Shown here piece after piece: positions 4,701 through 9,451 of a DNA stretch of 64,000 bases. Below the pieces are notes generated by a model. The model made no database searches, was not told the DNA's origin, and was given only the letters and a program-made list of their open reading frames with translations. Origin of the DNA: Daucus carota subsp. sativus (Eukaryota; Streptophyta; Magnoliopsida; Apiales; Apiaceae); assembly GCF_001625215.2 (NCBI RefSeq), contig NC_030385.2, positions 30,033,598 to 30,097,597 on the forward strand. The letters run 5' to 3'. Position 1 is the first letter of the stretch. Every line of letters starts with the position of its first letter. Both the position numbers and the translations under genes were made by a program.

Positions 4701-6546
4701 AAAATCACTACTTGTTCCTGACATTTTAACTTCTTTCCTCTTGTAAAGTTTCTTTCTCGATGCCCTAGAGAAGGTTCCTATTTCAAGAATTTACCAAAGA
4801 CAAGCTCCATTAAGCTTATCGACTTCGGGAGCACTACATTTGAACATCAAGATCATAACTATATAGTATCAACACGTCATTACCGTGCACCAGAAGTTAT
4901 TCTGGGTGAGTTTTCTTCTCTTGTGACATTTTCTTCCATTATTTAGTTTTAACTTCGATCATTTATAAGTTCTTTTAGCTGTGATACTATTTTACGTCTT
5001 TACTTAAGAATCAATTAGTTTCAAAAATTGATCTGATACTGCAGTAGAGATATTGTATTGATAGACTTTGATGGACCTACATCAATCTGGATTTGAAATC
5101 TTACCCCTAAAGTTTCTGTTCATAAAGAAAGCAGGGAGTGAATTTTTGATCAAACACATTGCGCCTTTTACGATCTCATCGTCACTAGTATATGTAAGAT
5201 CTTCCATCAATTGTGTAAACATTAGCTTAGATTGGGGATGTCCTGGTCAGTAAGTTTTCTTCAGGGAGTCCCGATATTAGTCTAAGGCATCCTGTCTTGA
5301 TTTAATTATTAATTAATGAATACAAGTTGACATACATAGTCTTTCTTTGCAGGTCTTGGGTGGAACTATCCTTGTGACATGTGGAGTGTTGGCTGCATCC
5401 TTGTCGAACTTTGCTCTGTAAGTCAAGTGTGAATGTGCTCCTTCGTTTCCTCTGTCAATTGCCTGGACACCTCTTTTAACATATCTTCTAGTTTTGATGT
5501 ATTATTCATTATTTTTTTTTGGAGAGTTTTTAATTTGCAAACTTTGTTTGAAAGAAGATATTTACTGTAGAGCTTCACCATGAGTGGTTTAGTTCTACTT
5601 ACAATTCTGAATATCTTCTGTTAAGTAGGGTGGTTTTTAAGTAATAGAAATTATAATTCATTTATAAATTACTGTCAATTTTGATAATAATATTCTTATT
5701 ATCATATGGGTCCTACAGTGTATAGCTTATATATCAATCCTGGTCAATTTCCAGTCTCAGCATCTCTCTTAGTCAAGTATCAAATCATTATAAATATAAT
5801 GGAGCAAAGCTCTTTTTTCATAGTTGATAAATATATATTACGTGCGCTGAATGTTGCTCATTGAACCCTGAAGTCAAAATTTTAAACTTTTACAATTCAT
5901 TTTTGACCATATTATCTTTCAGGGTGAGGCCCTTTTCCAGACACATGAGAACTTGGAACATCTTGCAATGATGGAGAGGGTTTTAGGACCGCTTCCCCAA
6001 CATATGATTATCAGATCCGAGTGAGATATCGTTGCTATAAGATTTTCATTTTTTGTTCTTAGAATTAAATTGTCACCAGACAGCTGACCGCATACACTTT
6101 TACAGTCGTCGTGCTGACAAGTACTTCAGAAGAGGTGTACGGTTAGATTGGCCAGAGGGGGCTACTTCAAGAGAGAGTATGAGGTCTGTCTGGAAATTGC
6201 CACGTCTCCAGGTAACTACTGTACACAGTTTATGCGGTTTACAGATTGCGCGGATATTATAACTTATCTTGTGTGCCAGTCTTTTACATTCATGGTTTAT
6301 AAAAAAACTTTGCCACATCATTCTTGTTCTTGTTTGCCCATCCTATATACTTATTTATACCTGCAATTTTTTATAATTGTTTTGCAGAATCTAGTCATGC
6401 AGCATGTAGACCACTCTGCTGGGGATTTAATTGATCTATTGCAAGGGCTATTACGATATGATCCAACAGAGAGACTTACAGCGAGGGAAGCTTTAAAACA
6501 CCCCTTCTTTACTAGGGATCTGAGAAGGTGTGGCTTTCCAATGTGA
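1758..6546 (+). CDS. AFC1: LAMMER-type dual-specificity protein kinase, AFC1-like
   Basis: This is a CLK/LAMMER kinase, a family that phosphorylates SR splicing factors in the nucleus. I read 12 exons: 1758-1862, 2650-2821, 3472-3498, 3605-3758, 3850-3898, 4012-4126, 4354-4445, 4749-4905, 5353-5417, 5923-6020, 6106-6211 and 6388-6546. They have GT-AG borders and matching phases and encode 432 residues. The start reads METQRMLDF and is followed by the basic stretch [11 protein letters not shown], as in AFC1. The glycine loop GEGTFGKV spans 100-107, the ATP lysine of VAIK is K122, the catalytic loop HTDLKPEN is 216-223, DFG is 263-265, and the diagnostic [12 protein letters not shown] is 324-335. 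HTD in place of HRD is normal for the family. The length fits Arabidopsis AFC proteins (about 427-467 residues, recalled). The N-terminal exon matches AFC1 better than AFC2. The 27-nt exon 3 is a micro-exon. Nothing suggests inactivation. Confidence 0.93.
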
Positions 6547-8762
6547 AATTGCCGTGATCCAGTGGTGAAATTGTTGAAGGGAAAAAAAAAAGTTTATATA
6601 AAGCATTAATGATAAAGAAAAAGAAATTAAATCTTGATAATCTGTCTCTGTTTTTTTTTTTTTTTGTTAATTTCCAAATTATTTCCTGTTGCTGATTGTG
6701 TGGGTGTTGATTTATATTTGCCTGTCCCTTTCCTGACCCCAAAATTTTCTCAAATCTTATGTTCCATACTTTGATCATGTTTAAATCTGTAAATCTGGAT
6801 ATTGTGTTTGTTTGGTTGCCCTGAAATGATTTGGCATATCAATTAAAAGTTTGGTCTAGCTCATCTACTCTGGAGATTTTATTTGTTTCTATTATCATCC
6901 TTACCAATTTTGTTGAAAGTCTGAGTAGCCCGCAGTACATGTTATAATTTTCGGTGTAAAGTTCTACATATTAATCTCATTATCAGCTTTCTATTAATTT
7001 TCCACAGTCAATCCCAATATTTGTGTTAAACCTTTGGCCATTAAAACCAGTCAAAACTACATGACAGTTTTCCCCTCAATGTAGCCTGTAGGTAATTGCT
7101 TAAGCTAAAGGTTGCCAGCTATGGGGGCAATAAGTTCTATTATGCCCTAAACTAAATTTCATGATTTTTTTTTTTTCTGTAATATGTTTTTTTCCTTAGA
7201 ATCCCCCAAATTCCCATATGTATAATACAATAAATTTGTGGTTAGAGTTCATCTCCTTTTTCACTGGTTCTTCGCTTCAACCAGAGTTTATCTCTTTCTT
7301 TTTTTTACTGGTGGTGCTCTTCTACTAGCAGTCTAGCACTGTTGAATCTACAATTATATGTAGGAAACATCTATATAACTAGAGTCCCTTCTTTTCTCTT
7401 TCTTTATGTTTCTTTCTATTTCAGATCACAGATTCTTGCAAGTAATTATATTCAACAACAGTGCAGATTCAAGTGCTGTTATCTACTTATCTTACTAATT
7501 AAAATAAAATAATGCCAGGTAATATTTGTTATAGTTTACTTGCAAGTTTTTTGTAGTAGCATCTCGATGCCACTTCCATCCAAGTCGAGCCACGTAAAGG
7601 ATTTGAAAGCATTATCTAAAATTTTAATATAAAACATCAATGATTGCTCAATCATCTGTTTTTCATCTGTTTACAATTACTAGCTGTAATCGCACTAGGT
7701 TTTCAACTGTAGTACTATCATCCAATATAAAAATACAAGTTTGGTAAAGCAGTTCACTCGTTTCTCACGGATTCATTTCTATCTAATTTTGGAAAACGAA
7801 TAGCTGAAATTTGGAGTACCTTGTGTGCGCAGAATTAAACACTTGACCTTACATTTGTTCTCCAAACTTTAAACGCTCACCCTCTTGTCCCCTTAAATTT
7901 GGAAGGTTTTTTAGATTAAGGTGGGTTTTTTGCCTTACAGTATAAGAAATTTATAGAAAAATTATTCGTTATGATTTTAAGCTCTTTTTTTTTTTTTTTG
8001 AAAATAAGATAAGATAAACGGATTCGAGCAAGTTATTTAACGAAGAAAAGAGCACCCGGTTGAGCTACGAGCATTAAAGATCTCGAACATCATACATAAT
8101 TATGAATAATTGAACTTGACATTTTAACATAATTTTAGCATAAGTAATTAATATAATATATCCGGATTTTTGCGAGGGAAGTCAAAAAGTTCAAATTAAA
8201 TACTTCCTCCTCATGTATTATATATGTAGTATTAATTTTTTATGAATAAAAATATAAACTACATTTTTTTATTCACAATTTTTTTCAAAAAAAACACTAA
8301 ATAGAGGTATTTTTTCTTTGCATCTTAAATTAGGTAAAAAATAAAATATTATAAAATGGAGACGCAACGAGCAAGTCGAGTACTGGTTCATCTTTCTTCC
8401 CGCTCAGCTGTGAAAATTTTAATTATGCACCAACAACAATAATAAAGCTGAAAAAGAAATATTGCTCCATCTGATATCTCCTCCCATCCAATAAGAAGCT
8501 GAAGCCCACGTGGGTAATCAAGGCCCACCATAATTATGACATCACCTGATCACTACGAAGTTTAATAAAAACAACTAGTAATATAATAACAATAAACGTA
8601 AAATCAGGTACCTGTAGTCGGTGCTATTTCACTGTCCGCTCGTTAATTTATTCGTCCTATGTGCCGCCTATATATCAACCTACCCATAACCATCTTCGAA
8701 TCTATACTCATACGAAGCTTTTTGTTTCTTGTACCAAGCATTCGCAGCGTACATTTATCATC
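6547..8762. other. Intergenic region without recognised genes
   Basis: It holds the AFC1-like 3' untranslated region, poly-T and poly-A runs (for example 7160-7180 and 7985-8000), and AT-rich sequence. About 8480-8650 is somewhat richer in GC and contains CCCACGTGGG (8506-8515), a palindromic G-box. That site lies about 250 bp upstream of the start of the next gene, so it may be a bZIP/bHLH (light-signalling) site in its promoter. Confidence 0.45.
8506..8515. promoter_or_regulatory. G-box palindrome CCCACGTGGG upstream of the RPGE-like gene
   Basis: A perfect 10-bp palindrome contains the CACGTG core bound by plant bHLH (PIF/HY5-type contexts) and bZIP factors. It lies about 250 bp upstream of the start codon at 8763. 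Light control would suit the RPGE-like family, but occupancy is inference only. Confidence 0.45.
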
Positions 8763-9451
8763 ATGACTGCTTCATCCTCTTCTGCCGCTTCATATATCCA
8801 TATGGTAAGTAATTCCGTCTTATTTACGATTTTAGTAAAAAACCGCACCGAACAGATATATGTTTGTGTTATCAGGTGCAACACTTGATAGAGGAGTGTA
8901 AAAGAACAGTGAGTTGTAATGGTTGTAATATATTCAAGTTAATATAATTGTTGTGGGTACAGGGTATATATAGTTGATACAGGATAACATTTACAAGATT
9001 ATACAAAACTAACAGTGCATATCCAGTAGTTCAGTTAAGTGCTTCAGTTATCTGATCGCTTGACTTGGTCTGGTATTGGATAGACTTAGTGGTTAGGATC
9101 TGTTAGAGTGCATATTATTTAACATGAGCAAGGAAGAATGCATGGATGCGCTTGCCAAACATGCCAACATCTTACCTGTCGTTACTTCCACAGGTAAGCT
9201 AAATTTGTGCTTATATTATTTTTCATATTTATAAGATGAAATAATAATAGGATGTGATTGCAGTGTGGAAGGAGCTGGAGAAAGAGAATAAACAGTTCTT
9301 TGAGGCTTACTCCATGAATACAAGAGAAATGAGAAGTTTGGTTAAGGAGAAATCAGCGGTTACTGATTATGAGTTGGAAACTATGAAGCAAAGAATCCAC
9401 AAGATGCTAAGCGATCTTAGATCTTCTGCATCTGATGGGTCAACTTGTTGA
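8763..9451 (+). CDS. Plant-specific TIGR01589 / RPGE-like small protein
   Basis: This is a member of the plant-only TIGR01589 domain family; Arabidopsis members include RPGE/PEL proteins, reported as repressors of photosynthetic genes that act on GLK factors. Likely exons are 8763-8804, 8876-8908, 9109-9193 and 9264-9451, encoding 115 residues in phase. The family signature can be read across them: SYIHM, VQHLIEEC, CILFNMSKEECMDALAKHAN, VWKELEKENKQFFEAY. In homologues the block from VQHLIE to the SKEEC motif is continuous. Here it is split by a 207-bp insert (8899-9105) flanked by GAGTG. A strong donor, ACA|GTGAGT at 8908/8909, and an AG at 9107-9108 would remove most of the insert as an intron and add only about four residues (C-K-R-T). 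If that splicing does not occur, the gene is broken: reading on without splicing soon meets stops. The C-terminal tail is poorly conserved. Confidence 0.75.
8899..9105 (-). mobile_element. Short solo-LTR-like insert inside the RPGE-like gene
   Basis: The 207-bp insert is flanked by the 5-bp direct repeat GAGTG (8894-8898 and 9106-9110). On the minus strand it has a TATA-like run followed by an AC-rich leader, like a small LTR without internal region. Its termini read TA...TA, not the usual TG...CA, so the LTR assignment is tentative; the duplication is clear. It interrupts a conserved host exon. Confidence 0.55.

What the first reader, a model, noticed from the sequence alone, without database searches (positions are those of the whole stretch)
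8876..9193. A transposon-like insert appears to have become an intron in a conserved RPGE-like exon
The block from VQHLIEEC to the MSKEEC motif is continuous in the family as I recall it. Here it is cut by 207 bp flanked by GAGTG on both sides. A canonical-looking donor (ACA|GTGAGT) lies 10 bp inside the insert, and an AG lies inside the right-hand duplication. Splicing these keeps the frame and adds about four residues, so the insert may have been turned into a spliceable intron at birth. Intron gain with the target duplication still visible is rarely caught this early. The alternative is that the gene was simply disrupted.
Basis: partly seen in the sequence, partly recalled or inferred. Interest (0 to 1): 0.75.

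Follow-up and report, generated by a model that had tools for sequence, protein, structure and literature searches.

The report
Solo retrotransposon LTR splitting a gene
In what appears to be the carrot genome, a 207-base leftover of a retrotransposon sits inside a conserved exon of a gene related to repressors of leaf greening; the rest of the gene is intact and the leftover carries usable-looking splice sites, so it may be a new intron or may simply have broken the gene.

Summary
Exon 2 (8876-9193) of an RPGE/BPG4/PEL-type gene (PF09713) is cut by 207 bp (8899-9105) flanked by GAGTG on both sides. In the 11 other exon-2 loci read in this genome the exon is uncut. The genome's size fits published carrot DH1 v3.

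The insert is identified: an antisense solo LTR of a very low-copy Ty1/copia family with TA...TA ends and 5-bp duplications. Relatives found: one complete element (C6:40444472-40449170) and one further copy (C5:6448038).

By a recalled plant score the best frame-keeping pair is 8909/9096: 188 bp, wholly inside the LTR, adding eight residues (KRTDLLEC).

Splicing is not shown. Of 2000 shuffled inserts 344 do as well, and competing AGs exist. The other exons, splice sites and conserved residues are intact, which argues against a long-dead gene, but the insertion is undated: 0.24-0.30 substitutions per site from its nearest copies is only an upper bound.

Verdict: LTR insertion near certain; in-frame intron about 0.45; plain disruption about 0.40. 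Transposon-born introns with visible duplications are already published, so at best a new member of a known kind.

The parts
8507..8512 (+). G-box CACGTG upstream of the gene (256 bp before the ATG); one of 8 in the window, so weak evidence
   Evidence: the published BPG4 promoter carries two G-boxes 288 and 180 bp before its ATG (PMC10774444, passage seen)
8763..8804 (+). exon 1, MTASSSSAASYIHM, followed by donor GTAAGT
8876..8898 (+). exon 2 left part, VQHLIEEC-, ending with the left target duplication
8894..8898 (+). left target-site duplication GAGTG
8899..9105 (-). solo LTR (207 bp) of a low-copy Ty1/copia family, antisense to the gene; the LTR reads TAACAG...TTTTA on the minus strand
8909..9096 (+). 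most likely intron if the insert is spliced: donor ACA|GTGAGT, acceptor TTAG|G, 188 bp, 66.5% A+T, possible branch site TTGAC at 9060
   Evidence: scores from a recalled plant matrix; no transcript evidence
9111..9193 (+). exon 2 right part, -ILFNMSKEECMDALAKHANILPVVTST, followed by donor GTAAGC
9264..9451 (+). exon 3, VWKELEKENKQFF...SDGSTC and stop; open frame kept

Best explanation
A Ty1/copia retrotransposon of a low-copy family integrated antisense into exon 2 of an RPGE/BPG4/PEL-family gene and duplicated GAGTG. Recombination between its two LTRs then left a solo LTR of 207 bp. (Insertion and solo-LTR state: shown by sequence. The recombination step: inferred from the standard route.) The pre-mRNA is then probably spliced, at least in part, from a donor 10 bp inside the LTR (8909) to an acceptor 9 bp before its other end (9096). 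That restores the frame and lengthens the conserved block from LIEEC-ILFN to LIEEC-KRTDLLEC-ILFN. (Splicing: inferred only.) Unspliced or mis-spliced transcripts would stop early; the unspliced one codes for 37 residues.
For: Insert ends equal the LTR ends of the complete element at C6:40444472-40449170, which has CTCTG on both sides and whose reading frames match the copia-type gag and RVT_2 families of Pfam. The insert is flanked by its own 5-bp duplication. Of 240 donor/acceptor pairs, 9 keep the frame to the normal stop; 8909/9096 scores highest, 9.79 against 5.32 for the next. The acceptor score 5.34 lies within the range of 18 family acceptors (0.74-9.16). The predicted intron is richer in A+T than the exon pieces around it, 66.5% against 58.5%, with a branch-like TTGAC whose A lies 33 nt before the end of the intron. 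The +8 product still matches PF09713 at 80.9 bits. Start codon, frame, both old introns' splice sites and stop are intact. In a 58-codon block it has 5 private residue changes against 3 and 4 in its two nearest paralogues. In simulation a neutral gene keeps all this with probability below 0.05 once about 0.06 substitutions per site have passed.
Against: No transcript was seen. In-frame spliceability is not special: 344 of 2000 dinucleotide shuffles of the insert reach 9.79 or more, and all 2000 have some frame-keeping pair. The donor (4.45) is at the low end: 3 of 20 family donor rows score lower, at least one of them doubtful. A pair outside the frame scores higher (8909/8982, 12.68) and eight others do too, and AGs at 9083 and 9089 lie between the likely branch site and 9096. 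Eight extra residues fall inside the domain that binds GLK1 in Arabidopsis (PMC10774444, passage) and cost 12.7 bits in the family score, 93.6 to 80.9. If the insertion is younger than about 0.04-0.06 substitutions per site, an intact frame says little.
Confidence: 0.45

Rival explanations
1. The solo LTR simply disrupted the gene. Transcripts read into the LTR, stop after 37 residues or are mis-spliced, and the allele is a null or near-null that is too young to have decayed; paralogues on C3 and C6 cover its function.
For: The unspliced reading ends after 37 residues, and that peptide gives no PF09713 match at E up to 1. Close paralogues exist on C3 and C6. The intact frame is not informative if the insertion is young: at 0.02 substitutions per site a neutral copy stays intact with probability 0.24-0.59 depending on the indel rate. 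Nine splice pairs that do not keep the frame score higher than 8909/9096.
Against: Start, splice sites, frame and conserved residues are all kept; in the three exons nothing but the insert looks damaged.
Confidence: 0.4
2. The reader's joint 8909/9108 is the one used, adding four residues.
For: It keeps the frame.
Against: Acceptor GAG|T scores -0.64, below all 18 family acceptors scored. A TAG ends two bases upstream (9106), and 8909/9106 is not among the nine frame-keeping pairs. The total is 3.81 against 9.79 for 8909/9096.
Confidence: 0.05
3. Other routes keep a shortened protein: intron 1 donor joined directly to 9096, 9108 or 9132, or translation from the ATG of MSKEEC.
For: Three joints from the intron 1 donor keep the frame to the end: 9096, 9108, 9132.
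Against: They drop VQHLIEEC, the start of the conserved stretch present in the family; nothing favours them over the inner donor.
Confidence: 0.1

Closest known systems
Intron gain by insertion of the retrotransposon Doc1053 in Drosophila sechellia GM26034 (PMC3296678, passages seen)
   Same: A retroelement inserted in a gene, target-site duplications still visible at and near the intron ends, element sequence forming the intron.
   Different: There the intron matches the element at 98.4% and the authors call the gain unambiguous; here an antisense solo copia LTR, much more diverged from its relatives, with no transcript evidence.
Transposon-derived introns reported for maize, rice and Oikopleura (listed in PMC3296678, passage; originals not read)
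   Same: Transposon insertion as source of an intron, also in plants.
   Different: Elements and genes differ; details not checked here.
SMART/FRetro129 small LTR elements near and in grass genes (PMC3281118, passages seen)
   Same: LTR elements and solo LTRs with 5-bp duplications in and near genes, some altering gene structure.
   Different: Those have TGT...ACA ends and no coding capacity, and their gene insertions lie mostly in introns; this LTR has TA...TA ends, belongs to a coding copia family and lies in an exon.
RPGE2/BPG4/PEL1 (At3g55240) and relatives, A_thal_3526 domain (PMC10774444, PMC12696372, passages)
   Same: Same domain, PF09713 and TIGR01589.
   Different: The passages seen say nothing about inserts in this block; exon maps of other species were not available here.

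Membership tests
Ty1/copia solo LTR | matches an LTR end to end and no internal region remains | tested here: met
   ends coincide with the C6 LTR ends; 207 bp only
Ty1/copia solo LTR | flanked by a 4-6 bp target-site duplication | tested here: met
   GAGTG on both sides
Ty1/copia solo LTR | source family encodes copia-type proteins | tested here: met
   Retrotran_gag_2 71.8 bits, RVT_2 227.8 bits in the C6 element; the third frame given had no match
Ty1/copia solo LTR | canonical TG...CA LTR ends | tested here: not met
   ends are TA...TA in both the insert and the C6 element; usual but not essential, since such ends are a known exception (recalled; the one search on it gave nothing that I used)
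A_thal_3526 (RPGE/BPG4/PEL) family | PF09713 match over the curated cut-off | tested here: met
   38.2 and 28.4 bits for the right part of exon 2 and for exon 3 alone, cut-off 27.8; for joined readings
A_thal_3526 (RPGE/BPG4/PEL) family | represses GLK and greening | not testable with these tools
   needs plants
Spliceosomal intron gained from a transposon | related copies of the gene lack the intron | tested here: met
   11 of 11 other exon-2 loci read in the same genome are uncut; orthologues in other species could not be searched
Spliceosomal intron gained from a transposon | insert carries splice sites that restore the frame | tested here: inconclusive
   a pair exists, but 344 of 2000 shuffles do as well
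Spliceosomal intron gained from a transposon | transcripts show it removed | not testable with these tools
   no reads or cDNA held

The most novel reading that the evidence does not exclude
A solo LTR, by virtue of its orientation, became an intron at birth: the antisense LTR ends of this copia family carry a ready acceptor (GTTAG|GATCTGTT, kept in all four LTR copies found), and the insert's own donor GT stands where both relatives that keep that end read AC. The new intron lengthens the GLK-binding domain of a greening repressor by eight residues, giving an altered microprotein rather than a lost one.
Probability: 0.3. Interest if true: 0.6.

Novelty: new member of a known kind. Interest (0 to 1): 0.4.

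Why it matters
[quoted passage not shown] If reads show 8909/9096 in use, this would be one in which source family, orientation, empty site and donor change can all be named, and the cost (eight residues in a conserved domain) can be measured in a trait, leaf greening. If reads show no splicing, it is an ordinary gene disruption in a family with spare copies.

Tried and rejected
DNA transposon or MITE: rejected, since the insert matches copia LTRs end to end. More copies for dating: two whole-LTR searches and two short pattern searches found only the insert, the two LTRs of the C6 element and the C5:6448038 copy; the DNA search scores only best candidates, so more may exist. A search with an internal piece of the C6 element gave 21 matches; the LTR stretches of 17 of these loci were printed, and by local BLAST against all 21 the insert matched only the C6 element and the C5:6448 copy at E 0.01. 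Exact reconstitution of the old exon by a GT-AG intron sliding within GAGTG was considered by hand and fails: no register gives GT at one end and AG at the other. Chance test of in-frame spliceability: not significant, 344 of 2000. dN/dS: low for the 5 of 10 pairs that gave a finite value (0.038-0.08; the other 5 were saturated), but this covers mostly the time before the insertion and cannot settle it. G-box: found at 8507 and in 1 of the 6 paralogues checked (L014), with 8 in the window altogether, so weak support. Papers: one search gave 3 listings, one search gave 4, one search gave 13; searches gave none; (non-canonical LTR ends) gave 120 papers, 10 listed, none used. Structure prediction was not run, because a spliced product cannot be read in one piece from the DNA.

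Splice scores rest on donor and acceptor frequencies recalled for Arabidopsis, not fetched; they were checked only against introns of this family in this genome (10 of the 12 loci given, the duplicate L019 and the window copy left out). There the exon-1 donors and exon-3 acceptors were picked by simple motifs and include doubtful rows. The simulation's substitution and indel settings and the usual clock rates are also my own or recalled.

Full report
Setting. The window lies in G000:C5:30033598-30097597 of a 441-Mb genome in 11 contigs. Published carrot DH1 v3 has nine chromosomes, 440.7 Mb and a longest sequence of 64.5 Mb (PMC10581907, passages); here C3 has 64,558,952 bases. I infer carrot; no tool named the species.

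The gene. Exon 1 is 8763-8804, exon 2 8876-9193, exon 3 9264-9451, with GT-AG introns between. This is the A_thal_3526 domain of RPGE2/BPG4/PEL, whose Arabidopsis member interacts with GLK1 through that domain in yeast two-hybrid and represses greening (PMC10774444, passages; rice relatives in PMC12696372, passages). A search with PF09713 gave 25 matches in the genome, 12 of them exon-2 loci over the cut-off. In 11 of these 12 the exon is unbroken; the window's copy is the only one cut. Two of the 11 are identical inverted copies. Two weaker partial matches (C7:5598020, C4:25415014) were not read.

The insert. It is 207 bp (8899-9105) between two copies of GAGTG. Whole-genome searches found four places: itself, both LTRs of an element on C6, and one copy at C5:6448038. 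The C6 element runs 40444472-40449170 with CTCTG on both sides, a tRNA-Met-type primer site after its first LTR (recalled motif), and frames matching copia-type gag, Pol_BBD and RVT_2; its later frame is interrupted. Its LTR starts TAACAG and ends TTTTA, as the insert does on the minus strand. The insert is therefore an antisense solo LTR. A study of carrot LTR elements describes low-copy copia lineages, with DcAle elements often near genes (PMC9324142, passages); I did not assign a lineage.

Age. The insert differs from its relatives by 0.24-0.30 substitutions per site (Kimura), while the C5:6448038 copy differs from the C6 LTRs by 0.10, and the two C6 LTRs match at 190 of 190 bases in the stretch that BLAST aligns; the C6 3' LTR lacks about 40 bases near its end. 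The distance of the insert includes the history of the source lineage, so it limits the age from above only.

Splicing. With donors from 8878-9100 and acceptors from 8960-9180, 240 pairs at least 60 bp apart were scored with a recalled plant matrix; 9 keep the frame to the normal stop. Best of these is 8909/9096 (9.79), product LIEEC-KRTDLLEC-ILFN. The acceptor stretch GTTAG|GATCTGTT occurs in all four LTR copies found; the donor GT is AC in both relatives that keep that end. Against this: 344 of 2000 shuffled inserts do as well, AGs at 9083 and 9089 compete, and nine pairs that do not keep the frame score higher, up to 12.68. Both C6 LTRs placed at the same site in the same orientation also give frame-keeping pairs (8.09 and 13.10), while the insert turned round gives 2.21. 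So antisense orientation may suit splicing, but three trials prove little.

Is the gene alive? In its exons nothing but the insert is broken. In a 58-codon block the window copy has 5 private residue changes, its two nearest paralogues 3 and 4; the five finite pairwise dN/dS values are 0.038-0.08. Simulated neutral decay makes the intact state unlikely (below 0.05) from about 0.06 substitutions per site on, and fairly likely at 0.02. The intact state thus means either a working gene or a young insertion. It does not choose between them.

Conclusion. Insertion and origin are firm. An in-frame intron at 8909-9096 is about as likely as a simple loss of function; I give 0.45 and 0.40. Transposon-born introns with visible duplications are in print (the Drosophila Doc1053 case and others cited in PMC3296678, passages). 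I met no report of this locus, but the searches were narrow: RPGE1/RPGE2 (16 papers, 15 listed) and carrot genome papers (30 papers, 15 listed), both seen as listings.

Noticed in passing
L018 and L019 (G000:C6:34227467 + and C6:34922886 -): Two A_thal_3526 loci about 0.7 Mb apart in opposite orientation are identical over 3105 of 3105 bases, introns and flanks included: a very recent inverted duplication or an assembly duplicate.
   Followed up: partly
L003/L004 (G000:C6:40444472-40449170): A complete low-copy copia element with TA...TA LTR ends and LTRs identical over 190 aligned bases, apart from about 40 bases missing near the end of the 3' LTR: a recent insertion of a family with non-canonical ends.
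   Followed up: partly
window 6148-6546: An open frame ends in [32 protein letters not shown], like the end of a LAMMER-type protein kinase (recalled resemblance), upstream of the gene studied.
   Followed up: no
L036 and L037 (C8:660315, C1:1290329): Copia elements of a related group whose 3' LTRs read alike and seem to have TAAC...GTTA ends.
   Followed up: no
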